Origin: Blautia faecicola
GTDB lineage: Bacteria > Bacillota > Clostridia > Lachnospirales > Lachnospiraceae
NCBI RefSeq assembly: GCF_004123145.1
Contig: NZ_SDKC01000001.1
Span: forward strand, 887,501 to 951,500
Direction: 5' to 3'
Length of the DNA: 64,000 nt
Below are positions 5,100 through 55,315 of the stretch, one piece after another (the first letter of the stretch is position 1; each line of letters starts with the position of its first letter). The position numbers were made by a program, and so were the translations under genes. The notes under the pieces are model-generated. The model worked only from the letters and a program-made list of their open reading frames with translations, ran no database searches and had not been told where the DNA came from.

Positions 5100-5112
5100 A
5101 GGATCGTGCAGT

Positions 5113-6306: not shown

Positions 6307-6333
6307 GGATGAAAGGTGCGAAAGGGAGAAAAA

Positions 6334-6726: not shown

Positions 6727-6736
6727 GAGTTAAGAG

Positions 6737-8050: not shown

Positions 8051-8058
8051 GAAAACGA

Positions 8059-8841: not shown

Positions 8842-8906
8842 AAGTATTACCGGTCAGCCGAACGGAAGGTACGGTCGGTATGCAAAAGTTACGAAAGGAT
8901 TAATCT

Positions 8907-9638: not shown

Positions 9639-9685
9639 CCGGATGATGTGAGATGTGATTGTATGTAGAAAGACAGGGGAAAAAG

Positions 9686-24593: not shown

Positions 24594-25157
24594 ATGGGAA
24601 AAATTACAGTAGAAACATGTGAAATTGAAGGACTGAAAGTGATTACACCTACCGTGTTCGGGGATGAACGTGGATATTTTATGGAAACTTATAACTACAA
24701 CGATTACAAGGCAGCAGGCATTGACATGGAATTTGTGCAGGACAATCAGTCCAGCTCCAAAAAGGGAGTTTTAAGAGGTCTGCATTTCCAGATTAATTAT
24801 CCGCAGGATAAACTGGTGCGCGTGGTAAGCGGAGAAGTGTTTGACGTTGCAGTAGATCTGCGTCCGGGTTCTGAGACATACGGAAAATGGTTTGGCGTTG
24901 TGCTGTCCGCAGAAAATAAAAAACAGTTCTTTATTCCGAAGAATTTTGCACACGGATTTATCGTACTGTCCGAGTCCGCAGAATTTGCATACAAATGTAC
25001 GGATTTCTATCATCCAAACGATGAAGGCGGACTGAAATGGGATGATCCGGAGATCGGTGTGGAATGGCCGATGCCGGAAGGAATGACAAAAGAAGAACTG
25101 ACCATCTCTGAGAAAGACCAGAAGTGGGGAAGTTTTGCGGAGTACAAAAATCGATAA
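24594..25157 (+). CDS. rfbC: dTDP-4-dehydrorhamnose 3,5-epimerase
   Basis: The 187-residue protein is an RmlC cupin that epimerises dTDP-4-keto-6-deoxyglucose on the way to dTDP-L-rhamnose. The active-site His64 (RGLHFQ) and Tyr139 (DFYHP) are visible and the length is typical. GAGAGG lies upstream of ATG. The partner genes rmlA, rmlB and rmlD are not in the window and must be elsewhere. Rhamnose as a component fits the many rhamnosyltransferase-like GT2 proteins here. Confidence 0.95.
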   Translation: MGKITVETCEIEGLKVITPTVFGDERGYFMETYNYNDYKAAGIDMEFVQDNQSSSKKGVLRGLHFQINYPQDKLVRVVSGEVFDVAVDLRPGSETYGKWFGVVLSAENKKQFFIPKNFAHGFIVLSESAEFAYKCTDFYHPNDEGGLKWDDPEIGVEWPMPEGMTKEELTISEKDQKWGSFAEYKNR

Positions 25158-25169
25158 GAGGGAAATGAA

Positions 25170-26552
25170 ATGGGAAGAAAGAAAAAGATTCTGGCCGGTA
25201 TCTGCGTTTTGTTTTTACTGGTTTTAAATGTGCTGATCGTAGGTCACAGAGGAAGCGTGGGAGGAAACTATGAACTTCATCTTACTGTGACCAGCGACAA
25301 GGAACAGGAGATTCAGGTTTATTACAGTGTAGCCAGAGAACTTTCAGAAAAGATGAGCCAGGTACAGTCGTATAACCAGGTGGGAGAAAGTCAGGAACTT
25401 GTTTTCTCAGTTCCATTTCAGTGTAATATGGTACGCCTGGATCTGGGCACACAGCCGGGAACATTTACGATCCAGGATGTGTACCTTGGATGCAAGGATG
25501 TAAAAGAACAGATTCCGGAGATGAATGATCCGAAACTGATCGAGGGACAGCAGATTGAGAGTATGGAGTCCAATAAAGGAACATTAAAAGTCTGGACCAA
25601 TGGAAACGATCCGTATATCTGGCTGACGATTGACAAAGACCAGCTGTATCCGGTTCTGGAAAAAGATTATACCCAGAAACTGTGGATCAAGAATATCCTG
25701 ATGCTTCTGCTGATCGACGGCGGAGCAGTGGTTGCGTTTGTTTTCCGGAAAAAAGTGCTGACACTTCCGATCGAGCTTTTGCAGAACCGGAAGCTGATCA
25801 TGAATCTGGCAAAGAATGACTTCAAGACCAAATATGCAGGTTCCTATCTGGGAATCGTATGGGCATTTGTACAGCCGATCGTTACGATCCTGGTATACTG
25901 GTTCGTATTCTCCGTCGGACTGAAGGCGGGAAATATATCGGATTATCCGTTTGTTCTTTATCTGGTATCCGGTATCGTTCCGTGGTTCTTCTTCCAGGAT
26001 GCGTTAAACGGCGGAACCAACGCCCTGATGGAATATAATTATCTCGTTAAAAAAGTAGTGTTTAAGATCAGTGTACTGCCAATCGTAAAGATGATCTCGG
26101 CACTGTTTGTACATGCATTTTTCGTTGTGTTTTCACTGGTTCTGTGCAGCCTGTACGGATACACACCGTCTCTGGCAACACTGCAGATTCTGTATTATTC
26201 GTTCTGTACGTTTATGCTTACGCTGGGACTGGTATATGCAACCAGTGCGATCGTTGTATTTTTCAGAGATCTGACACAGATCATCAGCATTTTCTTACAG
26301 GTAGGTGTCTGGCTGACACCGATCATGTGGGATGTCAACATGTTGTCCAACTATCCGTGGCTGATCAAACTGTTCAAATTAAATCCGATGTACTATATCG
26401 TCACCGGATACCGTGATTCCATGCTGGGTCACGTATGGTTCTGGAATCACTGGGGATGGACCGTATACTTCTGGATCGTAACAGTCGTATTGTTTGCGCT
26501 GGGTTCTTGGATCTTCAAGAGACTGAAACCACATTTTGCAGATGTACTTTAA
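25170..26552 (+). CDS. ABC-2 export permease fused to an N-terminal extracytoplasmic domain (Wzm type)
   Basis: Residues about 205-460 are a normal Wzm/RfbA-type permease (SYLGIVWAFVQPIVTILVYW, about 225-244; six helices). Unusually it is preceded by a membrane helix (7-24), a beta-rich domain of about 145 residues outside the membrane (25-170) and a second helix (172-192). The usual permease is about 260 residues, so some 200 are extra. The extra domain could receive the polymer outside or contact a wall ligase; that is inferred. It starts 12 bases after rfbC and is followed by its ATPase. Confidence 0.9.
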   Translation: MGRKKKILAGICVLFLLVLNVLIVGHRGSVGGNYELHLTVTSDKEQEIQVYYSVARELSEKMSQVQSYNQVGESQELVFSVPFQCNMVRLDLGTQPGTFTIQDVYLGCKDVKEQIPEMNDPKLIEGQQIESMESNKGTLKVWTNGNDPYIWLTIDKDQLYPVLEKDYTQKLWIKNILMLLLIDGGAVVAFVFRKKVLTLPIELLQNRKLIMNLAKNDFKTKYAGSYLGIVWAFVQPIVTILVYWFVFSVGLKAGNISDYPFVLYLVSGIVPWFFFQDALNGGTNALMEYNYLVKKVVFKISVLPIVKMISALFVHAFFVVFSLVLCSLYGYTPSLATLQILYYSFCTFMLTLGLVYATSAIVVFFRDLTQIISIFLQVGVWLTPIMWDVNMLSNYPWLIKLFKLNPMYYIVTGYRDSMLGHVWFWNHWGWTVYFWIVTVVLFALGSWIFKRLKPHFADVL

Positions 26553-26576
26553 GAGAAATCAAAGAGAGGATTACAG

Positions 26577-27854
26577 ATGTCAGAGATTGCAATTTCAGTG
26601 AATAACATCAGTAAGATGTATAAACTGTATGAGAATCCGATGGATCGGTTGAAAGAATCCCTTGGATTGACAAGAAAGAAACGATATAAAGAACACTATG
26701 CCTTGAACAACGTAAGTTTTCAGGTGAAAAAAGGGGAAACCGTGGGAATTATCGGAACAAATGGTTCCGGTAAATCCACGATCTTAAAGATCATCACCGG
26801 TGTGCTGAATCCCACACAGGGAGAAGTGGTGGTGGATGGAAGAATCTCCGCACTGCTGGAGCTGGGAGCCGGATTTAACGGTGAGTATTCCGGTATCGAA
26901 AACGTATATCTGAATGGTCAGATGATCGGATTCAGCAAAGAAGAGATCGATGCGAAATTGCAGGATATCCTGGATTTTGCGGATATCGGAGAATTTATCC
27001 ATCAGCCGGTAAAAACGTATTCGAGTGGTATGTTTGTCCGACTGGCTTTTGCCGTGGCGATCAATATCGAACCGGAAATCCTGATCGTAGATGAAGCGCT
27101 TTCCGTAGGAGATGTCTTTTTCCAGGCAAAATGTTACCGGAAGTTTGAAGAATTTAAAGAAATGGGAAAAACCATTCTGTTTGTAAGCCATGACCTGAGC
27201 AGTATCGGAAAATACTGTGACCGGGTTGTTCTGCTGAACAAAGGAGAAAAGCTGGCGGAAGGCGATGCGAAAGAAATGGTCAACCTGTATCGTCGCGTTC
27301 TGGTGAATCAGTATGACGAACCGGGCGAGAACAACGATACGAAGGAGACACAGGAGAAGGGAACAGCTGTACAGGAAGAGAAGAGTATGAAGGAACAGCT
27401 GAACCTGAATCCGAAGGTGCTGGAGTACGGAAGCAAGCTGGCAGAGATCCAGGATTTTGCCATCCGTGAGAAATCCGGAATGATCACCAATGTGATCGAA
27501 AAAGGGGAAGAATTTTCCGTGGATATGAAGATTCATTTTCATGAGACGATCCAAGAACCGATTTTTGCTTTTACGATCAAAGACCTGAAGGGAACGGAGA
27601 TCACCGGAACCAATACGATGTATGAAAACACACCGGTGGGTACACAGAAAGCAGGGGAGACCAGACGGATTCGATTCACGCAGAAGATGCCGTTAGAGGC
27701 GGGAGAGTATATGCTGTGTCTGGGATGTACCGGCTATCGTGACGGTGATTTTACTGTGTTCCACCGGCTGTATGATGTGTGTAATCTGACGGTCATTACC
27801 GATAAAAAAGCGGTTGGATACTTTGATCTGTTCTCAAAGGTCACGTTAAAGTAA
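26577..27854 (+). CDS. ABC transporter ATPase with Wzt-C-like carbohydrate-binding domain
   Basis: The 425-residue protein has a nucleotide-binding domain with Walker A GTNGSGKST (60-68), signature YSSGMF (148-153) and Walker B ILIVDE (168-173). A charged linker follows (about 248-280), then a beta-sandwich (about 285-425) matching the Wzt C-terminal domain. In Gram-negative O-antigen systems that domain recognises the modified non-reducing end of the finished chain. It directly precedes the giant methyltransferase/kinase-like protein, the kind of enzyme that makes such an end cap in E. coli O8/O9a. Gap to the next gene is 15 bases. Confidence 0.92.
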   Translation: MSEIAISVNNISKMYKLYENPMDRLKESLGLTRKKRYKEHYALNNVSFQVKKGETVGIIGTNGSGKSTILKIITGVLNPTQGEVVVDGRISALLELGAGFNGEYSGIENVYLNGQMIGFSKEEIDAKLQDILDFADIGEFIHQPVKTYSSGMFVRLAFAVAINIEPEILIVDEALSVGDVFFQAKCYRKFEEFKEMGKTILFVSHDLSSIGKYCDRVVLLNKGEKLAEGDAKEMVNLYRRVLVNQYDEPGENNDTKETQEKGTAVQEEKSMKEQLNLNPKVLEYGSKLAEIQDFAIREKSGMITNVIEKGEEFSVDMKIHFHETIQEPIFAFTIKDLKGTEITGTNTMYENTPVGTQKAGETRRIRFTQKMPLEAGEYMLCLGCTGYRDGDFTVFHRLYDVCNLTVITDKKAVGYFDLFSKVTLK

Positions 27855-27869
27855 CTGAGGAGGAAAAGA

Positions 27870-30800
27870 ATGGCGATACTGAACTTGGAGTATTATACGC
27901 AAAAAGATCTGTATTCAGATGGTGATATTGAAGAACAGATGTTAAAGATGGCAAAAGAAGGAATAACCTGCGAGGATCTTTCTAGTGAGCAGGTTTCCTT
28001 TCCTGTGATCTATCATTTTTCAGATCTGCGTGCAAATATCCTGAACTGGTATCCGATCACAAAATCGGACAGTGTACTGGAAATCGGTGCGGGATGCGGT
28101 GCGATCACCGGTACGCTCTGTGAAAAGGCAGGTCAGGTCACATCTGTGGAACTCTCAAAAAGAAGAGCACAGATCAATTATTACCGCAACGAGAAGAAAG
28201 AAAATCTGACGATCATGGTGGGAAATCTCAATGACATGGATCTGGGACAGCAGTATGACTATGTGGTAGTCAACGGAGTGCTGGAATATGCCATGAGTTT
28301 TACAGAGGGTGACACGCCATATGAAACTTTTTTAAGAAAGATGGGTTCCTATCTGAAAGATACGGGAAAACTGCTGATCGCGATTGAGAACAAGCTGGGA
28401 ATGAAGTATTTTGCCGGTGCGCCGGAAGATCATACGGACATTCCCTTCTTTGGCATCAACGGGTATCCGGGAAATCACAGTGTCAGAACATTTTCCAAAA
28501 CAGAATTGCAGGAACTGGTGAAAGAAAGCGGATTTCCTTTTCAGAAATTCTATTACCCGTATCCGGATTATAAGTTTCCGACGGAGATCTTCACGGATGC
28601 GTCACTGACTACCAATCATTATGGAAAAAATTATCCGATCTATACGGACAAAACCGTGGATCTGTTTTCAGAGACTGCCGGTATCGAGGCGATGAAGAAA
28701 GAACAGATAGCAGACCGTTTTGTGAATTCGTTTCTTCTGGTTGCAGGAAAGCAGGAACTCAAAGAAAAAGAAGAACTTTTATATGTCAAACTGAATCAGG
28801 GACGCAGGAAAGAATTCCGGACACTGACACAGCTGGTACGAAGAGATGACGGCGTGTGGGCAGAGAAAAAACCACTGTGCCCGGAGGCGGAAAGCTTTGT
28901 AGCGGGACTGGAAAAAACAGGAGCGCAGAAACCGGGAAAAGGATTTCACAATCTTCCGTGCCGGTATGAAAACGGCGGAATCGTGTATCCGGTACTGAGC
29001 GGGAAGACACTCGAAGACCGGATCTGTGATCTGGTGGAAAAAGAACAGACCGGTGAGATTCTGAGAACCCTGAAACATGTATATGAGCAGGTGTTCGCAC
29101 AGCGGAAAAGAGAACCGGAGTATCAGACGGAGGCTTTCAGAGAAGTATTCGGAGAACATCCGGGAAAGGACTATTATGAATGTGTAAGTCCGGCAAATGT
29201 TGATCTGATCTGTGCCAATATCTTTGAGTCCGGGGAGGACTACGAGATCATCGACTATGAATGGACCTTTGATTTCCCGATTCCGGCTGCTTTTATCATG
29301 TGGAGAATGATCCATGAACTGTATTGCCGGATTCCGAAACTGGGTGCGTTGTATACACAGGATGACATGAACCACGAATTTGGCATAGAGCCGTCGGACA
29401 GTGAGATCTTTCTGGCGTGGACGATGCATTTTACCTATGAATATGCAGGAAGCGATTCTCTGGATATTTACCGGAAAGACAGAATCCCTGTGGATCTGTC
29501 AGAGACTGTCCGGATATATCGGGAGAAAAAACAGTTCCCCAGCAAACTGTATTATGATACCGGTGCGGGGCTGTCGGAAGAGAACAGCATCGAGACGACG
29601 GTGGAGCTGAACCGGGGAAGATTTCAGGTTACGTTTGATCTGCACAATGTGGAAAATATCCGTGGAATCCGGTGGAATCTGTTAAGCGATACGTTTTGTG
29701 AGGTGAAAGTGGAAGTTCTCGACTGCGGATGCCACGGGGAGCTGATCCCGTTTGGCATGCGGATTGACAAAGCGGCGGATACGGTAGTATTTCTGAATCT
29801 GGCAGGCGGTTATTTTATCCATGTGACGGAACCTTCCGAACTGGAGAAGATTACGATTTCCGGTCAGATCCGTTTTCTGTCACAGAAAGAGATCGCAGAA
29901 GAGATCCAGCTGGAGCAGGAACGAAGAGAGGCAGTGCGCCGGGAAGAGGAACGAAAACTGCAGCAGCGGATGCAGAAGGAAGAACGGCTGGCAGCCAAAA
30001 AGGCGGAGGAAGCGAGAAGGCAGGAAGAACTTCGGGCAGTTCTGGAATTCCAGCAGCAGCCGAAGCAGAGAGCAAAACGGCTGGTGAAGAAGATGCTTGG
30101 ACGCCCGGTTGCCCCGCTGGTTACAGAGGATCAGCCGGCAGAACAACCGGCATCAAGCTGTGTGGGAAGCATCGACAGCTTCAGCTATGAAAACAGTGTG
30201 CTGCAGATCATCGGCTGGGCGTTTGACCGTGCGTATGCGATGGAAAACACCCATCTTGCCTTTTTACAGAATGGGGAAATCGTGGCGGAAGAACCGCTGA
30301 CCGTAGTGTACCGGAGCGATGTGGCAGCTGTTTTACAGATTCCGGAGGCAGAATCCTGCGGATTTTCCTGTGTGCTGGTGGTGCAGTCACCGGTGGAGAC
30401 GGAAGTGGCAGTTGCTTACGATACCGTAGACGGAGAAAAGACATATCCGTTATGTAAGATCCCGGCAGATCCGACCTACAATGAGATTCAGGTGTATACC
30501 CTGGAGGGACAGGAGAGCATCGGAAACATTCGGTATTTTAAGGAACGGTATCTGGAAGAAACACCGGTATTTGATGCGAAGATCCCTTCGGATGAAGTGA
30601 TCGATATTATTATTCCGATTTATAACGGCTTACAGTATTTTGACAAGCTGTTTGCGGGGATTGAAAAGACAAAGATGAAGTACCGTCTGATCCTGGTGGA
30701 CGATCAGAGTCCGGATCCGGCAGTACGGGAATATCTGGATCGATACGTGGCGGAACATGAGGGAACGGTTCTGCTTCGAAATGAGAAAAATATGGGATTC

Positions 30801-33542
30801 CTCCCGTCCGTAAACCGTGCCCTTGCAATTGCAGAGCATCATGTAGCACTGGTCAATACCGATGTGGAAGTGCCGGAGGGATGGCTGGAGCGACTGATGT
30901 GGCCGATCTTTACCAAAGAAAAAGTGGCATCCTCCACACCGTTTACAACCTGCGGAACGATCTGCAGTTTTCCGAATTTCTGTGAGGATAATGTCATTTT
31001 TGAAGGTATGCCATTATGGCAGATCGACGATGCTTTCCGCCAGATCCGTCCGCAGTATGCGACCATGCCGACCGGTATCGGTTTCTGCATGGGTATGAAT
31101 CTGGAAGCGATCAGGGAAGTAGGTCTTCTGGATGAGGAGAACTTTGACAAGGGATACGGAGAAGAAAATGACTGGTGCCAGCGTGCGATCCAGGCAGGTT
31201 ATACCAATGTACAGGTGGAGAATCTGTTTGTCTATCACAAACATGGCGGAAGCTTTTCTTCCGAAGAAAAATTACGGCTGTTAAAGAGTCATCTGGAGAG
31301 ATTGGCGAAGAAACATCCGAATTATAACAGCGATACGGCAGCTTTCTGCCGGAGAGATCCGGCAAGAACGATCCGGCTGTATGTGGAAACACAGCTGTTA
31401 AATCAGCTGCTGGATGTACCGGTGATCGTTGCCTTTGATCATAACCTCGGCGGCGGCGCCACGGAATATCTGATCGAGAAGCGCAAACTCGCGCTGAAAG
31501 AAGAAAAACGTTTCCTGACTGTCCGGTTTGACATCGATAATATGCGTTATTATCTGGAATATGAATACAAAAAATATAAAATCCAGTATTTTGCCAAAGA
31601 TCTGGATATGATCCTGGATGAGATCCCGAGAGTGGATGAGATCTGGATCAATGAGCTGGTAACCTACCAGGAGATCTATCAGGTACTGGATCAGATCCTT
31701 GCACTGAAAGAAAAACATCAGGCACATCTGAAGATGCTGCTTCACGACTTTTTCTTCATGTGTCCGGCAGTAAATCTGATGAATGATCAGGGAAAATACT
31801 GTCAGGGCGCGGATGCACAGACCTGTAACCAGTGTATCCCGGCAAACCGAAGCAATGCATGCCTGGACTATGAGTCCGGAACCGCATGGAGAACACACTG
31901 GAGAGAGTTTTTATCCCGGTGTGACGAGATCCTGGCATTCTCCGATGATACGGCACAGTTATTTAAAAAGACTTATCCGTATCTGTGTCAGTTACATGTA
32001 CTGCCGCACAAACCGCATTATGTGACGGCGCTGGATAAAAAGGCGAAGACGACAAAGACACTGAACATTGGTCTGCTCGGTGTGCTGTGTTATAAAAAAG
32101 GTCTGGATGTTGTCAAGGAGATGGTCAAAGAGATCGAGGCACAGAATCTGAATATCCGGATGAAGCTGATCGGTGTATCGGATGAAGAGATCGACAGTCC
32201 GGTATTCTCCTGTACGGGAAGATACACCAGAGATGAACTTCCGAGATTGACGATGGAAGAAGATATTGATCTGTTCTTTATCCCGTCCATCTGGCCGGAG
32301 ACCTTCTCGTATACAACTTCCGAGATCATGTCCATGCATATGCCGGTTGCCGTATTCCCGATCGGTGCGCCGGTGGAACGTGTAAAATATTACGAAAAAG
32401 GTCTGGTTCTGAAAGAGACGGATGCAAAATCGGCTCTGAAAGAATTGCAGGAGTTTGCAGAACATACACTGCACTGTCAGGAGATGCCGGTGCGCGAAAA
32501 GAAGATCCTGTTTGTGGGCGAGGAAATCTCGTTTGCTTCCCGTTACCGGGTGGAACACTTCCGGGAACAGCTGCACTATCAGGGCTATGGATCTGATTTT
32601 TATCAGGCAGATGAGGTCGCAGACCTTGACTGGAGCGAGTACCGTGCGGTCGTATGTTACCGCTGCAGCCGGGAAGATGTGGTACGCGCGGTAGTGGAAC
32701 AGGCGAAAAAAGTTGGATTAAAAGTATATTATGACATTGACGATCTGATCTTTGATTACGAAAAAATCTCTTATCTGCATTTCCTGACCGGAAGTGAGTA
32801 TAAAGATTTCAAAAAGACAACAGAGCAGATCCATTCCTGTATGGAACTGTGTGACGGCTACTTTACCTCCACCCATACACTGGCGGGAGAGATCCGGAGC
32901 GAATTTTCGGGAAAACCGGTGGTGATCAACCGAAATTGTGCAAGCATGGAGATGCAGATCCTGTCCCATGATGCAGTGGAGCAGGTGGAAAAAGACACCG
33001 AACATATTTCCATCGGTTACTTCAGTGGATCGAAGACCCACGATCAGGATTTTGAGGTGGCGGAAGAGGCACTTCTGGAAGTGATGAAAGAACATCCGGA
33101 AGTACGCCTGAAGCTGGTCGGTGTGCTTTCAGACAGAAAAATGGAAAAATTCGGAAATAAAGTGGAAAAACTTCCGTTTATGGACTGGAAACAGTTACCG
33201 GCTGTCATGGCAGGTATCGATATCAACCTGATGCCTCTGGAGGACAGTATCTTCCATTGCAGCAAATCCGAGAATAAATGGATGGAAGCCGCACTGGTGA
33301 AAGTGCCGTCTGTGATGAGCAGAAACCGGGAGATGGAAGGCGTGATCGAAAACGGTGTGGATGGCTGGCTTTGTAGCGACAAAGAAGAGTGGAAAAAAGC
33401 ACTCACCACATTGATCGAAGTGAAAACAGCCAGAGTGCAGATGGGCGAAAAGGCTCATGAAAAAGCGATGCGTCAGTATGTAACTCAGAATACAGGAAAA
33501 GATGCAAGAGAGGAATTACTATGCAGCGAGAAGTATTCGTAG
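27870..33542 (+). CDS. Giant multidomain protein: methyltransferase, kinase-like, coiled coil, GT2, two GT4-like
   Basis: The 1890-residue protein reads as follows. Residues 45-210 are a SAM methyltransferase (motif I VLEIGAGCGAITG, 69-81; acidic end of strand 2 at E94). Residues 290-490 look like an aminoglycoside-kinase-type fold, with K333/E339, a catalytic-loop-like VDLICANIF (444-452: D445, N450) and a metal site IIDYE (460-464). Residues 555-668 are beta-rich. Residues 672-745 are a highly charged coiled coil. Residues 762-870 form a beta domain with the GWAFD motif. Residues 908-1165 are a GT2 (IPIYNG, VDDQS, NTDVE). Residues 1183-1535 and 1545-1880 are GT4-like modules (PETFSYTTSE; IGYFSGSK...KWMEAALVKVPSV). 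The first part matches the domain order of WbdD. GGAGG precedes ATG. Its end overlaps the next gene by 22 bases. Confidence 0.88.
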   Translation: MAILNLEYYTQKDLYSDGDIEEQMLKMAKEGITCEDLSSEQVSFPVIYHFSDLRANILNWYPITKSDSVLEIGAGCGAITGTLCEKAGQVTSVELSKRRAQINYYRNEKKENLTIMVGNLNDMDLGQQYDYVVVNGVLEYAMSFTEGDTPYETFLRKMGSYLKDTGKLLIAIENKLGMKYFAGAPEDHTDIPFFGINGYPGNHSVRTFSKTELQELVKESGFPFQKFYYPYPDYKFPTEIFTDASLTTNHYGKNYPIYTDKTVDLFSETAGIEAMKKEQIADRFVNSFLLVAGKQELKEKEELLYVKLNQGRRKEFRTLTQLVRRDDGVWAEKKPLCPEAESFVAGLEKTGAQKPGKGFHNLPCRYENGGIVYPVLSGKTLEDRICDLVEKEQTGEILRTLKHVYEQVFAQRKREPEYQTEAFREVFGEHPGKDYYECVSPANVDLICANIFESGEDYEIIDYEWTFDFPIPAAFIMWRMIHELYCRIPKLGALYTQDDMNHEFGIEPSDSEIFLAWTMHFTYEYAGSDSLDIYRKDRIPVDLSETVRIYREKKQFPSKLYYDTGAGLSEENSIETTVELNRGRFQVTFDLHNVENIRGIRWNLLSDTFCEVKVEVLDCGCHGELIPFGMRIDKAADTVVFLNLAGGYFIHVTEPSELEKITISGQIRFLSQKEIAEEIQLEQERREAVRREEERKLQQRMQKEERLAAKKAEEARRQEELRAVLEFQQQPKQRAKRLVKKMLGRPVAPLVTEDQPAEQPASSCVGSIDSFSYENSVLQIIGWAFDRAYAMENTHLAFLQNGEIVAEEPLTVVYRSDVAAVLQIPEAESCGFSCVLVVQSPVETEVAVAYDTVDGEKTYPLCKIPADPTYNEIQVYTLEGQESIGNIRYFKERYLEETPVFDAKIPSDEVIDIIIPIYNGLQYFDKLFAGIEKTKMKYRLILVDDQSPDPAVREYLDRYVAEHEGTVLLRNEKNMGFLPSVNRALAIAEHHVALVNTDVEVPEGWLERLMWPIFTKEKVASSTPFTTCGTICSFPNFCEDNVIFEGMPLWQIDDAFRQIRPQYATMPTGIGFCMGMNLEAIREVGLLDEENFDKGYGEENDWCQRAIQAGYTNVQVENLFVYHKHGGSFSSEEKLRLLKSHLERLAKKHPNYNSDTAAFCRRDPARTIRLYVETQLLNQLLDVPVIVAFDHNLGGGATEYLIEKRKLALKEEKRFLTVRFDIDNMRYYLEYEYKKYKIQYFAKDLDMILDEIPRVDEIWINELVTYQEIYQVLDQILALKEKHQAHLKMLLHDFFFMCPAVNLMNDQGKYCQGADAQTCNQCIPANRSNACLDYESGTAWRTHWREFLSRCDEILAFSDDTAQLFKKTYPYLCQLHVLPHKPHYVTALDKKAKTTKTLNIGLLGVLCYKKGLDVVKEMVKEIEAQNLNIRMKLIGVSDEEIDSPVFSCTGRYTRDELPRLTMEEDIDLFFIPSIWPETFSYTTSEIMSMHMPVAVFPIGAPVERVKYYEKGLVLKETDAKSALKELQEFAEHTLHCQEMPVREKKILFVGEEISFASRYRVEHFREQLHYQGYGSDFYQADEVADLDWSEYRAVVCYRCSREDVVRAVVEQAKKVGLKVYYDIDDLIFDYEKISYLHFLTGSEYKDFKKTTEQIHSCMELCDGYFTSTHTLAGEIRSEFSGKPVVINRNCASMEMQILSHDAVEQVEKDTEHISIGYFSGSKTHDQDFEVAEEALLEVMKEHPEVRLKLVGVLSDRKMEKFGNKVEKLPFMDWKQLPAVMAGIDINLMPLEDSIFHCSKSENKWMEAALVKVPSVMSRNREMEGVIENGVDGWLCSDKEEWKKALTTLIEVKTARVQMGEKAHEKAMRQYVTQNTGKDAREELLCSEKYS

Positions 33543-35971
33543 TAGAAAAGGAAAGATTTGACCTTGCAGATGATAGAATCTATCATCTGCAGGGTACCTG
33601 GCCAAAGGAACATACCGCAGCAGCGGAGCTGGACGGGAAACCGCTGGAGGTAAATCTGAAGCAGCAGGAGCGCATCAGTGCCCTGGAGCGTTTTCAGGAT
33701 CTGGATCTGGTGGATGCAGTCCGCATCCAGATGGAAATTCGGTTTCCGGAAAAGCTGGAACAGTATAAGAAGCTGGTGGTTTATGCGGTACAGGGTGGAA
33801 AAAAAGATGTCTGGTTTTCGATTCCGGTAAAACAGCTGATCCGAAGACAGGGCATGCCGCAGTATTTTATTGAGAGTTCTGAAGTTGACCGGAAACTCGG
33901 TATCTGCCGGGTGCGTGGATGGGCAGCTTATACGGAACCGTTGAAAGTATACCTGGAGAATTCCCGTGGAAACAGAATTCCATGTGAGATCCAGTATCTG
34001 AAACGTGTCGATGTGCAGAATCAGTATCCGGAGGCAGAGGTAGAAGAAAAATGCGGGTTCTTTTTTGAACTGCATTACCAGCAGCTGAAAGAATTTTATA
34101 TTGTTTTTGAGGCGGGTTCGGTACAGGTGAGAAGACAGATCCATCTGCAGCCGGTACAGCTTGCCGCGGAAAAGATGAATGAATACTGCAAAAAGGGCAG
34201 CCGCTATCTGAAACTGCACGGACCGGTGGCACTTGCGGAAAAAGTGGTCGGAAAAGTGAAAAATAAAAACAAAGCCGCTGTGATCTATCAGAAATGGCTT
34301 CCGAAACATCTGCCGAGCAAAGCAGAACTCGAACGCCAGCGGCAGGAACGTTTTTCCTGGGAACCGACCTTCAGTGTGGTTGTACCGCTCTATAAAACAC
34401 CGGAAAAATATCTCCGTGCACTGGTGGAATCCCTGCAGGCGCAGACCTACGGCAAATGGGAACTCTGCCTGTCTGACGGAAGCGGTGCAGATTCTCCGAT
34501 CCGGGAACTGTTAAAACAGTTACAGAAGGAAGAGGGCAGAATCAGAGTCATCGATCATCAGGAACAGTTACAGATCTCAGAAAATACGAATGCTGCGATC
34601 GAGGCGGCAACGGGTGAGTTTGTGGTATTTGCCGATCACGACGACGAACTGACGGCACATGCGCTGTATGAGTGTGTGAAAGCACTGAATGAGAAACCGG
34701 AGACAGAGGTGCTGTATTCGGATGAAGATAAGATGACGATGGACGGACACAAGTTCTTCCAGCCGCATTTCAAACCGGATTATAACGTAGATCTGCTGTG
34801 TACGGTCAATTATATCTGCCATCTGTTTGTGGCAAAGAAAACACTGATCGACGAGGTTGGAATGTTACGCAGAGAATTCGACGGAGCGCAGGATTATGAC
34901 TTTATCTTCCGCTGTGTGGAACATGCGGGAGCGGAAAAGATCCATCATGTTCCGAAGATCCTGTATCACTGGCGCTGCCATGAAGATTCCACATCAGAGA
35001 ATCCGGAGAGCAAGCTGTATGCGTTTGATGCGGGACAGCGGGCGGTGCAGGCGCACTACGACCGGATTGGTGTGAAAGTGGAAGTGAGCAAGGGAGAGTT
35101 CCTGGGACTCTACCGGACAAAATTCCTGCGGGATTATGATCCGCTGATTTCCATCATTATCCCGAACAAAGATCATATCGATGATCTGAAACGGTGTATC
35201 GATTCGATCGAGGAGAAGTCCACGTATAAAAACTACGAGTATATTATCGTAGAGAACAACAGTGAAGAGAAAGAAACCTTTGCGTATTACCAGCAGCTTG
35301 AGGCAGTCAATTCGAAAGTACATGTGGTGTATTATAAAGGGCACTTTAACTACTCTGCGATCAACAATTTCGGTGTGCAGTATGCAAAAGGAGAGTATTT
35401 CCTGCTGTTAAATAACGATACGGAAATTATCAATGAGGACTGTCTGGAGGAGCTGCTTGGCTACTGTACCAGAGAAGATGTGGGTGCTGTGGGTGCGCGG
35501 CTGTATTATGAAGATGATACGATCCAGCACGCCGGTGTGGTCATCGGTTTCGGTGGAATCGCCGGACACTGTTTCGTACAGCAGAAGCGTGGATTTACCG
35601 GATACTGTCACCGGATCATCTGTGCACAGGATTACAGTGCGGTAACGGCGGCGTGTATGATGGTAAAACGGAAAGCGTTTGAGGAAGTCGGTGGTTTGAG
35701 CGAAGAACTGCAGGTGGCATTTAACGATATTGATTTCTGTATGAAACTTCGACAGGCAGGATATCTGATCGTGTATAATCCATATGCGGAACTGTACCAT
35801 TACGAATCCAAATCCAGAGGACTTGAAGATACACCGGAAAAAGTGGCAAGATTCAATCAGGAGATCGCCACTTTCGAGAAACGCTGGCCGGAGATTTTAA
35901 AGAACGGCGATCCGTTCTACAATCCGAACCTGACCCTGGACAGCCAGGATTTCTCACTGAAACGGTTATAA
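33521..35971 (+). CDS. Tandem-domain GT2 glycosyltransferase with N-terminal beta domain
   Basis: The 816-residue protein has a beta-rich N-terminal part (about 1-210) containing RGWAAY (132-137), similar in pattern to the GWAFD domain of the upstream giant protein. Two GT2 domains follow: 283-510 (VVPLYKTPE, ADHDDE 371-376) and 541-790 (IIPNKD, LNNDTE 630-635). This two-GT2 type is known among rhamnosyltransferase-like enzymes that add two sugars in turn. It closely parallels the 605-residue protein at 48442, which lacks the beta domain. The start overlaps the giant gene by 22 bases, so expression is coupled. Confidence 0.9.
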   Translation: MQREVFVVEKERFDLADDRIYHLQGTWPKEHTAAAELDGKPLEVNLKQQERISALERFQDLDLVDAVRIQMEIRFPEKLEQYKKLVVYAVQGGKKDVWFSIPVKQLIRRQGMPQYFIESSEVDRKLGICRVRGWAAYTEPLKVYLENSRGNRIPCEIQYLKRVDVQNQYPEAEVEEKCGFFFELHYQQLKEFYIVFEAGSVQVRRQIHLQPVQLAAEKMNEYCKKGSRYLKLHGPVALAEKVVGKVKNKNKAAVIYQKWLPKHLPSKAELERQRQERFSWEPTFSVVVPLYKTPEKYLRALVESLQAQTYGKWELCLSDGSGADSPIRELLKQLQKEEGRIRVIDHQEQLQISENTNAAIEAATGEFVVFADHDDELTAHALYECVKALNEKPETEVLYSDEDKMTMDGHKFFQPHFKPDYNVDLLCTVNYICHLFVAKKTLIDEVGMLRREFDGAQDYDFIFRCVEHAGAEKIHHVPKILYHWRCHEDSTSENPESKLYAFDAGQRAVQAHYDRIGVKVEVSKGEFLGLYRTKFLRDYDPLISIIIPNKDHIDDLKRCIDSIEEKSTYKNYEYIIVENNSEEKETFAYYQQLEAVNSKVHVVYYKGHFNYSAINNFGVQYAKGEYFLLLNNDTEIINEDCLEELLGYCTREDVGAVGARLYYEDDTIQHAGVVIGFGGIAGHCFVQQKRGFTGYCHRIICAQDYSAVTAACMMVKRKAFEEVGGLSEELQVAFNDIDFCMKLRQAGYLIVYNPYAELYHYESKSRGLEDTPEKVARFNQEIATFEKRWPEILKNGDPFYNPNLTLDSQDFSLKRL

Positions 35972-41156: not shown

Positions 41157-41170
41157 AATAATCCTTTCTT

Positions 41171-42133: not shown

Positions 42134-42145
42134 ACAATCCTCCTG

Positions 42146-51399: not shown

Positions 51400-52806
51400 T
51401 TGATTAAAGATAATCAGAAGTACTTTAATCGTATGCACGTAGTGATAGATGCCGTTGTGATCATCATTTCCTATCTGGCGGCATGGTTATTAAAATTCGT
51501 GGGTCCGTTTTCCGGCGATGCGGTCAGGAGCTTGTCTTTTGAGTGGTATATGACAGCACTGTTTGGAATTGTCCCTGTTTATCTGATTCTGTATTATGCA
51601 TTTAATTTGTATACACCCAAACGGGTACAGGGACGCAGGCTGGAATTTTCCAACATTGTAAAAGCGAATACAGTGGGACTCCTGTTGTTGATCGGCGGCA
51701 TCTATGTGTTGCTCAAAGAGATCAACTTTTCCCGTGACATGTTGTTTTACTTTTATTTTATCAACATGTGTCTGGAAGAACTGGTTCGTATGGCGATCCG
51801 CTATCTGTTGCGGGATATCCGCAAGAGAGGACTGAATCAGAAGCATATCTTACTGGTTGGTTACAGCAAGGCAGCGGAAGGATATATCGACCGGATCCTG
51901 GAAAATCCGCAGTGGGGTTATCAGATTCGGGGAATCCTCGATGACAATGTGGAAGCGGGAACTACGTACCGCGGAATTAAAGTACTTGGAAGAATTGCTA
52001 ATCTGATGGTGATCTTACCGGAAAACCGGCTGGATGAGATCGCGATCACTTTGGGACTGAGTGAGTATTACCGGCTGCAGGAAATTGTGGCAATGTGTGA
52101 AAAGTCAGGAGTTCATACGAAGTTTATTCCTGATTATAACAATATCATTCCGACAAAACCGTATACGGAAGATTTACTGGGACTTCCGGTCATCAATATC
52201 CGGTATGTGCCACTGACCAATACGTTCAACGCGGTGGTGAAACGGCTGATGGATATCTTCGGATCGCTGGTTGCAATCATCCTGTTTTCTCCGGTGATGC
52301 TGTTTGCCGTGATCATGATCAAACTGACGTCTCCGGGACCGTTGATCTATAAACAGGAGCGGGTGGGACTTCACAATCATACGTTTATGATGTACAAGTT
52401 CCGTTCGATGGAAGTACAGTCAAAGGAAAGTGAAAAGAAGGCATGGACCGTGAAAAACGATCCAAGAGTGACCGGAATCGGAAAACTGATGCGAAGGACG
52501 AGTATCGATGAACTGCCACAGCTGTTCAACATCCTGAAAGGGGATATGAGTTTGGTGGGACCAAGACCGGAGCGTCCGTTTTTCGTGGAAAAATTCAGGG
52601 AAGAAATTCCGAGATATATGGTGAAACATCAGGTACGTCCGGGTCTTACCGGCTGGGCACAGGTGAACGGATACAGGGGCAATACCTCGATCCGGAAACG
52701 AATCGAATACGACCTGTATTACATCGAAAACTGGTCGATCGGACTGGATATAAAGATTATTTTGCTGACATTTTTAAAAGGCTTTATCAACAAGAATGCG
52801 TATTAG
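51400..52806 (+). CDS. Undecaprenyl-phosphate sugar phosphotransferase (WcaJ/WbaP-like, full length)
   Basis: The 468-residue protein has four N-terminal membrane helices (about 12-130), a CoA-binding-like soluble domain (145-250), a further membrane segment (about 282-310) and the catalytic domain with D370-E371 in TSIDELPQ, GPRPERP and RPGLTGWAQ. It attaches the first sugar phosphate to undecaprenyl phosphate. Its TTG start has AAAAGG 9 bases upstream. It is the second priming enzyme of the locus; the other, at 3567, is a minimal form fused to GT2, so at least two glycans are probably begun here. Confidence 0.93.
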   Translation: MIKDNQKYFNRMHVVIDAVVIIISYLAAWLLKFVGPFSGDAVRSLSFEWYMTALFGIVPVYLILYYAFNLYTPKRVQGRRLEFSNIVKANTVGLLLLIGGIYVLLKEINFSRDMLFYFYFINMCLEELVRMAIRYLLRDIRKRGLNQKHILLVGYSKAAEGYIDRILENPQWGYQIRGILDDNVEAGTTYRGIKVLGRIANLMVILPENRLDEIAITLGLSEYYRLQEIVAMCEKSGVHTKFIPDYNNIIPTKPYTEDLLGLPVINIRYVPLTNTFNAVVKRLMDIFGSLVAIILFSPVMLFAVIMIKLTSPGPLIYKQERVGLHNHTFMMYKFRSMEVQSKESEKKAWTVKNDPRVTGIGKLMRRTSIDELPQLFNILKGDMSLVGPRPERPFFVEKFREEIPRYMVKHQVRPGLTGWAQVNGYRGNTSIRKRIEYDLYYIENWSIGLDIKIILLTFLKGFINKNAY

Positions 52807-52857: not shown

Positions 52858-54123
52858 ATGGCGAAGAAGAAAAACCTGACGGACAGACAGAAAAGAGTCC
52901 GACGCAGACGTCGGAGAAGTACGTTGAGCAGAGTGATGTTCGCACTGGAAATTATCGTTCTGGTAGTCCTGATGGGCGGACTGTTTGTATATGCGAAACT
53001 TGGAAAGCTGAATCACGAGACGATCAATGAAGAAGAACTTGATGTGAATGAGAGCGTGACGGAAAACCAGGTCATGAAAGGATATACCACGATCGCACTG
53101 GTAGGAATCGACAGCCGGGATGACAAGCTGAAGAGTGACTGGAACAGTGATACGATGATCATAGCAAGCATCAATAACGACACCAAGAAAGTAAAACTGG
53201 TGTCGGTATACCGGGATACCTATCTGTGTCTGGGAGAAGATGAAGATGAAAATAATTCCTATGGACTTGCCAATTCGGCGTATTGTACCGGCGGTGCCAA
53301 GAAAATGATCAACATGCTGAACAAAAATCTGGATATGAACATTTCCGATTTTGTTACCGTGAATTTTCAGGCAGTGGCAGAGACGGTGGAACTGCTTGGT
53401 GGAATTGATGTGGAGATGAAAAAAGAAGAGGTTGTTCATCTGAACAATTATTGTGTGGAAACCTCGGAAGTGACAGGGATGGATTACACCCCGCTGGAGG
53501 AAATCGAGGGTGTGCATCATCTGAACGGTGTACAGGCAGTAGCTTATGCACGAATCCGAAAAACATCCGGAAACGATTTCCGCCGTGCGGCAAGACAGAG
53601 GGAAGTGATCTACAGAATTGTAGAAAAAGCGAAGAATTCAAGTATTGCCACGTTAAATACGGTACTGGATAAAATTTTCCCTATGATCTATACCTCATTA
53701 ACGGAAAAAGAGATTTTATCGATGGGAATGAATATGCTGTCATATGATATTGAAGATCAGACCGGTTTTCCGTTTGATCATCTGTATGGCGATACGGTGA
53801 AAGAGGCGATGGATGGTGTGGACTGCGTACTGCCGATCACCCTGGAGTCGAATGTAATCAAACTTCATGAATTCCTGTACCCGGAAGACAGTTATGTACC
53901 GTCAAACGAGGTGAAGACATACAGTCAGGAAATTATCGATAAGAGTGGATTTGGTGAAGAATCCAGACTGGAACACTCGGAAGACGGATCGCTGGCAGCT
54001 TATCGGGAAACGGATACAGAATCCGCTGATACGACAGAAAATACTGCGGATACACAGGAAGAGAGTACGGCAGATACAACCGGTGACACACAGGGATATG
54101 ATGAGTCTTCCCTGGCACAGTAA
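52858..54123 (+). CDS. LytR-CpsA-Psr (LCP) family protein, copy 1
   Basis: The 421-residue protein has a very basic N-terminus (1-25), one membrane helix (about 27-46) and an extracellular LCP domain with SDTMIIASIN (97-106), the catalytic-type Arg in VYRDTY (117-122), ARIR (231-234) and FRRAARQ (241-247). LCP enzymes join lipid-linked teichoic acids or capsules to peptidoglycan. The last 40 residues are Thr/Asp/Glu-rich. It follows the priming transferase by 51 bases and precedes a close paralogue. Confidence 0.94.
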   Translation: MAKKKNLTDRQKRVRRRRRRSTLSRVMFALEIIVLVVLMGGLFVYAKLGKLNHETINEEELDVNESVTENQVMKGYTTIALVGIDSRDDKLKSDWNSDTMIIASINNDTKKVKLVSVYRDTYLCLGEDEDENNSYGLANSAYCTGGAKKMINMLNKNLDMNISDFVTVNFQAVAETVELLGGIDVEMKKEEVVHLNNYCVETSEVTGMDYTPLEEIEGVHHLNGVQAVAYARIRKTSGNDFRRAARQREVIYRIVEKAKNSSIATLNTVLDKIFPMIYTSLTEKEILSMGMNMLSYDIEDQTGFPFDHLYGDTVKEAMDGVDCVLPITLESNVIKLHEFLYPEDSYVPSNEVKTYSQEIIDKSGFGEESRLEHSEDGSLAAYRETDTESADTTENTADTQEESTADTTGDTQGYDESSLAQ

Positions 54124-54157
54124 ACCTTAGGGGATACAAAAGAGGGAGGGGAAGTCT

Positions 54158-55315
54158 ATGGCTAAGAAGAAACCACTGACCAAAAAACAAAAGAGAATCT
54201 TACAGAGAAGAAGACGCAGAAGAATCCTGTTCGGAATAGAGATTTTTCTTCTGCTGATTCTGATTGGCGGAGTATTTATCTATGCAAAACTGGGCAAGAT
54301 GAATTTTACCGATCTTGATTTCAGTAAGATTGGTGTGAATACCGGTGTCAGTGACAATAACGTGATGAAGGGATATACGACGATCGGACTGATCGGTCTG
54401 GATGGTCGTGACGGAGAACTGAAATCGGGCGCCCGCAGTGATACGATGATCATAGCAAGTATCAACAATGACACCAAAAAGGTGAAACTGGTGTCGGTAT
54501 ATCGTGATACCTATCTGCGGATCGGGGAAGATTCTGAGGGAAACGGTCAGTATAATAAAGCGAATGCTGCCTATGCAGAAGGTGGTCCGGAACAGTTTCT
54601 GAGTATGCTGAATACCAATCTGGATCTGAATGTGACAGATTTTGTGAGTGTAGACTTCCAGGCAGTTGCGGAAGCCGTGGAACTGCTTGGTGGAATTGAT
54701 GTGGAACTGAAAGAAGAAGAAGTGGTTCATCTGAACAATTACTGTGTGGGGACCTCAAAAGTTACCGGCATGGATTATACACCGCTGGAGGAAAAAGCAG
54801 GTGTCCATCATCTGAACGGTGTACAGACGGTATCTTATGCACGAATCCGTTATACATCCGGAAATGATTTCCGCCGTGCGGCAAGACAGCGAGAGGTAAT
54901 CTACAAAATTGTAGAGAAAGCAAAGAACTCGGATATTGCCACCCTGAGCAAGATTCTGGATAAGGTATTTCCAAAGGTATATACTTCCTTTACAAAAGCA
55001 GAAATCCTGCAGATGGGAATGAGCATGATGTCATATGACATCGAAGATCAGACCGGTTTCCCGTTTGATCATCTGTATGGAGAACGGGTAAAAGATGCGA
55101 TGGGTGGTCTGGATGTGGTACTCCCGGTTACGCTGGAATCCAATGTAATCAAACTGCATGAGTTCCTGTATCCGGAAGACAGTTATACTCCTTCCGATGA
55201 GGTAAAAGCATACAGTCAGAGAATCGTGGATAAGAGTGGTTTCGGAGATGAGTCCCGACTGGATCATTCAGAGGATGGATCTCTTGCCGCTTATCGTACG
55301 GGTGGTACGGAGTAA
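54158..55315 (+). CDS. LytR-CpsA-Psr (LCP) family protein, copy 2
   Basis: The 385-residue protein is a close tandem copy of the previous gene, with the same basic start, helix and LCP motifs (SDTMIIASIN, VYRDTY, FRRAARQ), but without the acidic tail. Long stretches are also similar at the nucleotide level, pointing to a recent duplication. The two could attach different polymers or form a pair. AGAGGGAGGGG lies upstream of ATG. Confidence 0.94.
   Translation: MAKKKPLTKKQKRILQRRRRRRILFGIEIFLLLILIGGVFIYAKLGKMNFTDLDFSKIGVNTGVSDNNVMKGYTTIGLIGLDGRDGELKSGARSDTMIIASINNDTKKVKLVSVYRDTYLRIGEDSEGNGQYNKANAAYAEGGPEQFLSMLNTNLDLNVTDFVSVDFQAVAEAVELLGGIDVELKEEEVVHLNNYCVGTSKVTGMDYTPLEEKAGVHHLNGVQTVSYARIRYTSGNDFRRAARQREVIYKIVEKAKNSDIATLSKILDKVFPKVYTSFTKAEILQMGMSMMSYDIEDQTGFPFDHLYGERVKDAMGGLDVVLPVTLESNVIKLHEFLYPEDSYTPSDEVKAYSQRIVDKSGFGDESRLDHSEDGSLAAYRTGGTE

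What the first reader, a model, noticed from the sequence alone, without database searches (positions are those of the whole stretch)
26577..33542. WbdD-like chain-end module fused to three glycosyltransferase modules, beside a Wzt with an end-reading domain
The 1890-residue protein starts with a methyltransferase, a kinase-like fold (D445, N450, D462 in the expected motif order) and a 74-residue charged coiled coil. This is the order of E. coli WbdD, whose cap ends the O-antigen chain and whose coiled coil acts as a length ruler. Here the module is continued by GT2 and two GT4-like domains, in an apparent Gram-positive. The gene lies 15 bases after an ATPase with a Wzt-C-like domain, the part that reads such caps. 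A single polypeptide may polymerise, cap, measure and hand over a surface glycan. Domains and gene order are seen; the joint function is inference.
Basis: partly seen in the sequence, partly recalled or inferred. Interest (0 to 1): 0.82.

Follow-up and report, generated by a model that had tools for sequence, protein, structure and literature searches.

The report
Six-module glycan-cap enzyme beside end-reading exporter
A gut bacterium of the Gram-positive type carries one giant enzyme that appears to help build a surface sugar chain and seal its tip with a methylated phosphate, next to an export pump whose tip-reading domain looks matched to that seal; the trick is known from some outer-membrane bacteria, and here it proves common in a major gut bacterial family.

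Summary
Window 25170-35971 encodes Wzm, a Wzt with a true Wzt_C reader and, 15 bases on, a 1890-residue protein: methyltransferase, kinase, beta-sandwich, charged helix, second beta domain, GT2, GT4, GT4. The kinase is invisible to Pfam, but its model matches aminoglycoside-type kinases (Z 14.1), and D445/N450/D462 are invariant in 41 of 41 aligned sequences. The methyltransferase-kinase pair occurs in 149 of 299 family genomes, fused or as adjacent genes, and shares a locus with Wzt_C in 97 of 110 distinct loci. Best filing is not WbdD but the Klebsiella O7 ORF6 terminator, which puts methylphosphate on a rhamnose chain end. The pocket position that is Trp in methyl-reading Aquifex Wzt is Arg in O9a and in 97 of 97 Wzt_C from these loci; 22 control Wzt_C with another residue have no kinase within 1.5 kb. 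The coiled-coil 'ruler' is weak: no heptad pattern, short or absent in same-architecture relatives. Likely function: phosphorylate and methylate the chain end, stop growth, license export. The chemistry is inferred. New variant of a known kind.

The parts
24594..25157 (+). dTDP-4-dehydrorhamnose 3,5-epimerase (RfbC/RmlC), 187 aa
   Evidence: Pfam PF00908 E 6.5e-74
25170..26552 (+). Wzm, ABC-2 type permease with an extra N-terminal domain, 460 aa
   Evidence: Pfam ABC2_membrane E 2.1e-17; NCBIfam galactan_ABC_perm E 5.8e-16, below its cut-off
26577..27311 (+). Wzt, nucleotide-binding domain (residues 1-245)
   Evidence: phmmer to Aquifex Wzt 8dku, residues 6-245 (whole-protein E 3.6e-83)
27417..27854 (+). 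Wzt_C, chain-end reading domain (residues 281-425); N346 and R397 (codon 27765-27767) are the pocket positions discussed
   Evidence: PF14524 E 3.6e-42; Bacillota-only profile to 2r5o (E. coli O9a Wzt-C) E 1.6e-14 and to Aquifex 1.7e-8; R397 97/97
27870..28760 (+). Methyltransferase domain of the 1890-aa protein (residues 1-297)
   Evidence: Pfam Methyltransf_12 E 2.3e-8; VIA Z 17.2 to 6f5z_A and 16.1 to CgnL 7pd7
28764..29489 (+). Kinase domain, APH/choline-kinase type (residues 299-540); D445 codon 29202-29204, D462 codon 29253-29255
   Evidence: VIA Z 14.1 to APH(3')-Ia; motif invariant 41/41
29532..29879 (+). Beta-sandwich-like domain (residues 555-670), at the place of the CBM of K. pneumoniae O7 ORF6
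   Evidence: ten strands in the model, similar; own fold search not done
29883..30053 (+).
   Evidence: single helix in the model; no heptad register
30057..30110 (+). Basic amphipathic segment (residues 730-747), candidate membrane contact
   Evidence: 18-residue window with moment 0.49, net charge +7; basic stretch aligned in L072-L075, but L073 scores 0.31 and L075 has no window that passes
30159..30461 (+). Second beta domain (residues 764-864)
   Evidence: strands in the model
30555..31409 (+). GT2 glycosyltransferase module (residues 896-1180)
   Evidence: PF00535 E 5.5e-13, residues 913-1084
31410..32609 (+). GT4-type glycosyltransferase module (residues 1181-1580)
   Evidence: PF00534 best stretch 1391-1533
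32610..33524 (+). GT4-type glycosyltransferase module (residues 1581-1885)
   Evidence: PF13692 best stretch 1726-1850
33521..35971 (+). Dual-GT2 protein (816 aa), homologous to the C-terminal GT2-GT2 half of an O7-like terminator
   Evidence: two PF00535 stretches, E 8.4e-43; 500.6 bits to residues 920-1449 of the P. asturiensis protein
51400..52806 (+). Initiating sugar-phosphate transferase (Bac_transf), possible start of the glycan
   Evidence: PF02397 E 8.3e-73; link to this operon inferred
52858..55315 (+). Two LytR-CpsA-Psr proteins, possible attachment of the glycan to the wall
   Evidence: PF03816 E 9.8e-33 and 2.1e-35; link to this operon inferred

Best explanation
The 1890-residue protein is a Gram-positive, O7-ORF6-type chain terminator fused to three glycosyltransferase modules. 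Its kinase phosphorylates the non-reducing terminal sugar (probably rhamnose) of an undecaprenyl-linked glycan that its own GT modules and the neighbouring dual-GT2 protein elongate; its methyltransferase then methylates that phosphate; the methylphosphate cap stops growth. The Wzt_C domain of the neighbouring exporter recognises the cap, with an arginine in the pocket where the methyl-reading Aquifex Wzt has tryptophan, and Wzm-Wzt exports the finished chain. Shown here: domain order, kinase and methyltransferase folds (predicted models), invariant catalytic residues, strong linkage of methyltransferase, kinase and Wzt_C, homology of the methyltransferase-kinase to an O7-like Gram-negative protein, and the arginine shared with the O9a reader. 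Inferred: substrate, order of reactions, methylphosphate as the product, cap reading.
For: Kinase fold with D445/N450/D462 invariant in 41 of 41; spacing +5/+17 against +5/+18 for D351/N356/D369 of WbdD (PMC3482155). Published O7 ORF6 landmarks Y28, Y66, G91, G93, E112, Y158 (PMC11231755) are the same letters at the same positions in the 1457-aa protein of Pseudomonas asturiensis (its kinase Asp is two places off D441), which our methyltransferase and kinase profiles hit with 208 and 32.5 bits (its E-values are for a four-sequence file); in the window they are Y15, Y48, G73, G75, E94, Y140 (read). Kinase fused to or next to the methyltransferase in 110 of 110 distinct loci. Wzt_C in 97 of 110. 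In 299 family genomes both in 142, methyltransferase-kinase alone in 7, Wzt_C alone in 38, neither in 112. Bacillota-only reader profile: O9a Wzt 2r5o 57.1 bits, Aquifex 37.5 bits. Arg at the Trp362 position in 97 of 97 Wzt_C from the window and these loci, against another residue in 22 control Wzt_C, none of which has a kinase hit within 1.5 kb. The second exporter of the same window (8059-9638, among TagF-like genes) has neither reader nor terminator beside it.
Against: No glycan structure was found for this organism. WbdD itself did not appear among the fold matches. The window's Wzt_C alone scores Aquifex slightly above O9a (29.7 against 25.7 bits). The coiled coil that marks characterised terminators is not convincing in this protein. 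In L042, L052, L055, L096, L100, L136 and L150 no Wzt_C is near the pair (L042 and L052: one on another contig of the genome), L078 is cut too close to tell; L073, L097, L098, L114 and L130 show an ATPase without a Wzt_C hit. The Citrobacter relative lacks the second kinase Asp by alignment, so not every member need be an active kinase. Loci are not phylogenetically independent, the set-1 loci were chosen among the closest matches, and the 97 Wzt_C were collected by similarity to the window's.
Confidence: 0.7

Rival explanations
1. A WbdD homologue proper: same family as the E. coli O9a enzyme, with a coiled-coil length ruler, extended by GT modules.
For: Same order methyltransferase-kinase-helix; D445/N450/D462 spacing close to that of WbdD; reader profile closest to the O9a Wzt.
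Against: The kinase matches aminoglycoside-type kinases, as the O7 ORF6 kinase does (AmiN), and PMC11231755 states that the O7 and WbdD kinases differ in sequence and structure; an O7-like protein is a sequence relative, whereas WbdD did not surface in the lists shown, which excludes nothing; no heptad pattern in the helix.
Confidence: 0.1
2. The cap carries phosphate but not methylphosphate: the kinase makes a phosphate or cyclic phosphate on the terminal rhamnose, and the methyltransferase methylates a hydroxyl, as WsaE does in Geobacillus S-layer glycans.
For: The rhamnose-containing glycan of C. difficile Ox247, thought to be ABC-exported, appears to end in a cyclophospho-rhamnose (PMC6254364); WsaE is credited with a 2-O-methyl cap (PMC2943079).
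Against: Methyltransferase and kinase occur together in 110 of 110 loci, though the loci were found through the methyltransferase-kinase query; the nearest characterised relative makes methylphosphate; the capping enzymes of Ox247 are not named in the passages read.
Confidence: 0.18
3. The methyltransferase-kinase decorates internal or side-chain sugars and the link to Wzt_C reflects only common residence in polysaccharide clusters.
For: Polysaccharide clusters hold many modifying enzymes (general knowledge); 13 of 110 loci lack a Wzt_C neighbour.
Confidence: 0.08

Closest known systems
ORF6 of Klebsiella pneumoniae O7 (PMC11231755; abstract, found passages and part 1 of 2 of the Discussion read)
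   Same: N-terminal methyltransferase, kinase domain without annotation and APH-like in fold, Ig-like domain, helix, C-terminal GT modules in one polypeptide; six landmark residues kept; chain containing rhamnose. In an O7-like relative the gene follows Wzm and Wzt.
   Different: Here in Bacillota; one GT2 and two GT4 modules instead of two GT2, the dual GT2 being the next gene; an extra beta domain after the helix; no clear coiled coil. In the passages read the paper names relatives in alpha- and gammaproteobacteria, cyanobacteria and Methanoculleus, not in Bacillota.
WbdD of E. coli O9a / K. pneumoniae O3 (PMC3482155; abstract, section 7 and passages read)
   Same: Methyltransferase then kinase; Asp-x4-Asn and a downstream Asp; partner of a Wzt with a chain-end reader.
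   Different: Its kinase is described as eukaryotic-type and as different from that of O7; long coiled coil; polymerase WbdA is a separate protein.
WsaE of Geobacillus stearothermophilus NRS 2004/3a (PMC2943079; passages read)
   Same: Gram-positive; methyltransferase fused to rhamnosyltransferases; Wzm and Wzt just upstream; [quoted passage not shown]
   Different: No kinase described in the passages read; cap is 2-O-methyl; two GT modules.
Wzt-C of E. coli O9a (2R5O; identity from a figure legend in PMC6286764)
   Different: Reads a mannan end; sequence is distant, and the window's Wzt_C alone scores Aquifex slightly higher.
C. difficile Ox247 S-layer glycan (PMC6254364; passages read)
   Same: Clostridial, rhamnose-containing glycan with an ABC transporter in the locus and a phosphate at the non-reducing end.
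   Different: Cap is assigned as a cyclic phosphate; capping enzymes not named in the passages read.

Membership tests
K. pneumoniae O7 ORF6-type methyltransferase-kinase terminator | SAM-site residues Y28, Y66, G91, G93, E112, Y158 | tested here: met
   Same letters at Y15, Y48, G73, G75, E94, Y140 of the window; Y15, Y48, G73, G75, Y140 invariant in 51 of 51
K. pneumoniae O7 ORF6-type methyltransferase-kinase terminator | APH-like kinase with catalytic Asp (D441) | tested here: met
   D445 invariant 41/41; model fold Z 14.1 to APH(3')-Ia
K. pneumoniae O7 ORF6-type methyltransferase-kinase terminator | Sequence homology of both domains to O7-type proteins | tested here: met
   P. asturiensis O7-like protein: methyltransferase profile 208 bits, kinase profile 32.5 bits; the K. 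pneumoniae sequence itself was not available, its identity rests on six landmark positions
K. pneumoniae O7 ORF6-type methyltransferase-kinase terminator | Ig-like CBM after the kinase | tested here: inconclusive
   Ten-stranded domain at 555-670 in the model; not searched alone
K. pneumoniae O7 ORF6-type methyltransferase-kinase terminator | Coiled coil between terminator and GT modules | tested here: inconclusive
   Helix 672-728 modelled, no heptad register, short or missing in L073-L076
K. pneumoniae O7 ORF6-type methyltransferase-kinase terminator | Makes methylphosphate on terminal rhamnose | not testable with these tools
   Needs enzyme assay or glycan structure
WbdD (E. coli O9a) | Kinase Asp-x4-Asn ... 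Asp motif | tested here: met
   D445/N450/D462 against D351/N356/D369
WbdD (E. coli O9a) | WbdD-type kinase and methyltransferase fold | tested here: inconclusive
   WbdD chains not among the rows shown, which excludes nothing
WbdD (E. coli O9a) | Long heptad coiled coil | tested here: not met
   6 of 14 hydrophobics in best a/d frame, 74% of shuffles as good; a simple count, not a coiled-coil predictor
Wzt with chain-end reading domain | Wzt_C fused to the ATPase | tested here: met
   PF14524 E 3.6e-42
Wzt with chain-end reading domain | Sugar pocket Asn (Aquifex Asn313) | tested here: met
   N346, 97/97
Wzt with chain-end reading domain | Methyl pocket of Aquifex (Leu300, Thr346, Ala348, Trp362) and His350 | tested here: not met
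   T333, C381, G383, R397 and T385 in the window (alignment)
Wzt with chain-end reading domain | Binds the cap and not the bare chain | not testable with these tools
   Needs binding assay
WsaE | Methyltransferase fused to rhamnosyltransferases, no kinase | tested here: not met
   Kinase domain present

The most novel reading that the evidence does not exclude
About half of Lachnospiraceae genera wear surface glycans capped by methylphosphate, and terminator and exporter co-evolve through a readable cap code: an arginine in the Wzt_C pocket goes with methyltransferase-kinase terminators (charged cap), other residues at that place go with other caps. The cap of an unknown glycan could then be predicted from one residue of its exporter.
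Probability: 0.45. Interest if true: 0.75.

Novelty: new variant of a known kind. Interest (0 to 1): 0.62.

Why it matters
If right, chain capping by methylphosphate, worked out in a few Gram-negative O antigens, is a common surface feature of a dominant family of gut commensals, where immune lectins, antibodies and phages meet the chain ends. The Arg-versus-other rule at one pocket position of Wzt_C makes the question of how an exporter knows a finished chain directly testable by one point mutation. The fusion of terminator and three glycosyltransferase modules in one chain, with split versions in relatives, gives a natural series for asking how termination and polymerisation are coupled and how length is set without an obvious coiled-coil ruler.

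Tried and rejected
WbdD was looked for by sequence (profile of methyltransferase-kinase against PDB; best 60 of 144 matches shown, and the best stretches shown lie on the methyltransferase) and by fold: not in the rows shown. This excludes nothing, since generic methyltransferases or kinases fill the lists. Pfam and NCBIfam do not show the kinase (the 25 best of 42 NCBIfam matches).

The coiled-coil ruler idea was tested by a heptad count and by alignment of the linker in six proteins of the same architecture: the helix is E/R/K-rich without register; the same screen gives 33 residues in L073, 30 in L074 and nothing in that place in L075 and L076. Several other family members do have heptad-like segments after the kinase (for example L102, L110, L096, L137), so a ruler may exist elsewhere in the family. 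A C-terminal basic amphipathic helix as membrane contact was counted: 21 of 61 kinase proteins without a recognised GT, against 0 of 70 Wzt and 21 of 135 GT proteins, pass the same threshold; suggestive only.

The phylum-level search gave 9 of 299 genomes at E <= 1e-40, four of them of the window's family, so the pair is concentrated in the family rather than general in the phylum. The plasmid collection gave 2 records, which became the Gram-negative comparisons.

The control list was not clean: of 8 supposed 'Wzt_C without terminator' loci with the Arg motif, 6 do have methyltransferase and/or kinase hits beside them, missed by the earlier cut-off; so the genome table understates the link.

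'Closest to O9a' holds for the profile, not for the window sequence alone; confidence in the best explanation was lowered from 0.72 to 0.70 for this.

The survey most likely to list Gram-positive terminators (Mann, Kimber, Whitfield 2019, Glycobiology) is not held, nor is the paper on the O9a reader; so 'not described in Bacillota' rests only on the passages read in PMC11231755 and on the listings.
Full report
What is there. In the window a run of genes on the + strand reads RmlC-type epimerase (24594-25157), Wzm (25170-26552), Wzt (26577-27854), the 1890-aa protein (27870-33542) and a dual-GT2 protein (33521-35971). The organism is near Oliverpabstia intestinalis: the methyltransferase-kinase part is 93% identical to contig NZ_VUMS01000018.1, a member of the Lachnospiraceae, and the second genome of the same genus holds an 1890-aa protein with the same modules.

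The kinase. Pfam shows nothing between the methyltransferase and the coiled-coil-like stretch. With 51 aligned sequences AlphaFold gives a model of residues 1-690 at pLDDT 93.6; a second model of 285-905 has 83.8. The 50 VIA rows shown for the second model are kinases, phosphotransferases or complexes that hold one, led by APH(3')-Ia (Z 14.1, rmsd 3.8, 203 residues aligned), with macrolide kinases, LicA choline kinase and PRPK/Bud32 below; Foldseek's own list is weaker and mixed (4 matches at E <= 0.001, all kinases; non-kinases further down). D445, N450, D462, E464 and W465 do not vary in 41 aligned sequences. WbdD uses D351, N356 and D369 for catalysis and metal (PMC3482155): spacing +5 and +18, here +5 and +17. 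The methyltransferase domain matches class I enzymes, CgnL among them (7pd7, Z 16.1), which PMC11231755 reports as the closest match of the O7 ORF6 methyltransferase.

Relatives. The methyltransferase-kinase query (residues 1-677) hits 149 of 299 genomes of the family at E <= 1e-10, 148 of 298 genera. I fetched 20-kb or shorter stretches for 40 of these genomes, taken from the top of the ranking with some skipped, and 80 named loci from genome contigs, the best 80 of 576; 10 pairs are the same locus, leaving 110. In all 110 the kinase is either fused to the methyltransferase or the adjacent gene. Forms counted (set 1 + set 2 without duplicates): fused pair alone 67 (23 + 44), separate adjacent genes 22 (11 + 11), methyltransferase beside kinase-GT 10 (3 + 7), fused pair with GT2-GT4-GT4 as in the window 5 (1 + 4), fused pair with GT2 and GT4 3 (1 + 2), fused pair with GT2-GT2 as in O7 3 (1 + 2). 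Named carriers outside the family include Paenibacillus, Schinkia, Clostridium puniceum, Sulfurovum and a deltaproteobacterium.

Link to the exporter. A Wzt_C gene on the same strand lies upstream within 200 bases in 32 of 40 and 56 of 80 loci, 1.5 to 3.2 kb upstream in 5 of 40 and 13 of 80, downstream in 1 of 80; it is missing in 3 of 40 and 10 of 80, of which five have an ATPase without a Wzt_C hit and one is cut 237 bases upstream of the gene. Per genome: both 142, pair only 7, Wzt_C only 38, neither 112 of 299 (odds ratio 60, p 2e-39, species taken as independent, which they are not).

Which family. A 1457-aa protein of Pseudomonas asturiensis (L153) carries the six published SAM-site residues of K. 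pneumoniae O7 ORF6 at the published positions, its kinase Asp two places off, and sits after an ABC permease and an ATPase with a Wzt_C match; our methyltransferase and kinase profiles find it with 208 and 32.5 bits, and its C-terminal half matches the window's next gene with 500.6 bits. The O7 protein phosphorylates and then methylates the end of a rhamnose-containing repeat mimic, with D441 needed (PMC11231755). So the window module is best filed as an O7-ORF6-type terminator. What works like WbdD need not be WbdD: PMC11231755 says the two kinases differ in sequence and structure.

The reader domain. A profile of nine Wzt_C from Bacillota loci plus the window finds E. coli O9a Wzt-C (2r5o) with 57.1 bits and Aquifex Wzt with 37.5; the window alone gives Aquifex 29.7 and O9a 25.7, the Schinkia reader alone O9a 28.9 and Aquifex 17.1. 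An earlier profile with a stronger O9a match included two Gram-negative readers and is not relied on. A figure legend in PMC6286764 identifies 2R5O. The O9a chain ends in methylphosphate (PMC3482155), the Aquifex chain in 3-O-methyl sugars, whose methyl is lidded by Trp362 (PMC9445017). The alignment puts Asn313, His350 and Trp362 of Aquifex on N346, T385 and R397 of the window (chain numbering is one ahead of the paper's), and the methyl pocket is otherwise not kept (T333, C381, G383). Arg stands at the Trp362 place in 97 of 97 distinct Wzt_C from the window and the loci, in the Citrobacter and Pseudomonas readers, and in O9a. Of 30 Wzt_C (30 of the 38 genomes first taken as controls without the pair), 8 have the Arg motif, and 6 of these 8 turn out to have methyltransferase and/or kinase hits beside them; the other 22 have Tyr, Phe, Trp or Cys there and no kinase hit within 1.5 kb (one, L181, has a weak methyltransferase hit). 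Fisher p 1e-22 with loci taken as independent. Divergent Wzt_C could have been missed in the 97, since they were collected by similarity to the window's.

How it most likely works. GT modules of this protein and the dual-GT2 neighbour extend a lipid-linked rhamnose-containing chain; the kinase phosphorylates its end, the methyltransferase methylates the phosphate, growth stops, Wzt_C binds the charged cap through R397 and neighbours, Wzm-Wzt exports. Initiation (Bac_transf, 51400-52806) and wall attachment (two LCP proteins, 52858-55315) are in the window but their part in this pathway is inferred. A Clostridium difficile S-layer glycan with a phosphorylated rhamnose end (PMC6254364) shows that phosphate-ended glycans with an ABC transporter in the locus exist in clostridia.

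Length control. Characterised terminators hold polymerase and terminator apart by a coiled coil (PMC11231755; PMC6286764). Here a 57-residue E/R/K helix sits between them, without heptad order, and it is short or missing in L073-L076. Either length is set in another way, or the helix is a monomeric spacer, or residues outside it matter. A basic amphipathic segment follows the helix; WbdD has a membrane-associated amphipathic helix beyond its coiled coil (PMC11231755).

Internal control. The window has a second polysaccharide ABC exporter (8059-9638) among TagF-like genes; its ATPase is 243 aa without Wzt_C, and the methyltransferase and kinase queries hit nothing beside it; the genome holds one Wzt_C match in all.

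Standing. The design, terminator fused to polymerase and read by Wzt_C, is known; its spread through half of the sampled genera of a Gram-positive gut family, the GT2-GT4-GT4 fusion, and the one-residue correlation between reader and terminator did not turn up in the searches, with the reservation that the 2019 survey of such systems could not be read.

Noticed in passing
L097 8298-9947, L098 8309-9952 (Paenibacillus): The methyltransferase-kinase gene follows an ABC ATPase whose roughly 300-residue C-terminal part has no Wzt_C match; in L098 it has an NHL-repeat hit (E 1.1e-6). A candidate other kind of chain-end reader.
   Followed up: partly
window 3567-10930: A second polysaccharide cluster: Bac_transf-GT2 fusion, three CDP-glycerol glycerophosphotransferase (TagF-like) genes and a Wzm/Wzt-like exporter without Wzt_C.
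   Followed up: partly
window 22362-24332, 36042-36455, 36460-37890: Two DUF2142 membrane proteins and a GtrA protein flank the terminator operon; may add side branches outside the membrane.
   Followed up: no
window 37984-43075: Block on the minus strand: DUF6077 membrane protein, ATP-grasp protein, a protein without Pfam hit (41171-42133) and a GT2-like protein.
   Followed up: no
window 43243-44115: LicD-family protein (PF04991) next to glycosyltransferases, pointing to a phosphocholine-like or other phospho-substituent.
   Followed up: no
window 19232-22183: 983-aa protein with an N-terminal hydrolase-like part (HxHxDH-like motif) and many C-terminal aromatic cell-wall-binding-like repeats; read by eye, not searched.
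   Followed up: no
L092: Gene order turned round: methyltransferase-kinase upstream of Wzm and Wzt.
   Followed up: no
L162-L183: A second kind of Wzt_C in the family without the Arg motif and without a kinase hit nearby; its cap and terminator are unknown.
   Followed up: partly
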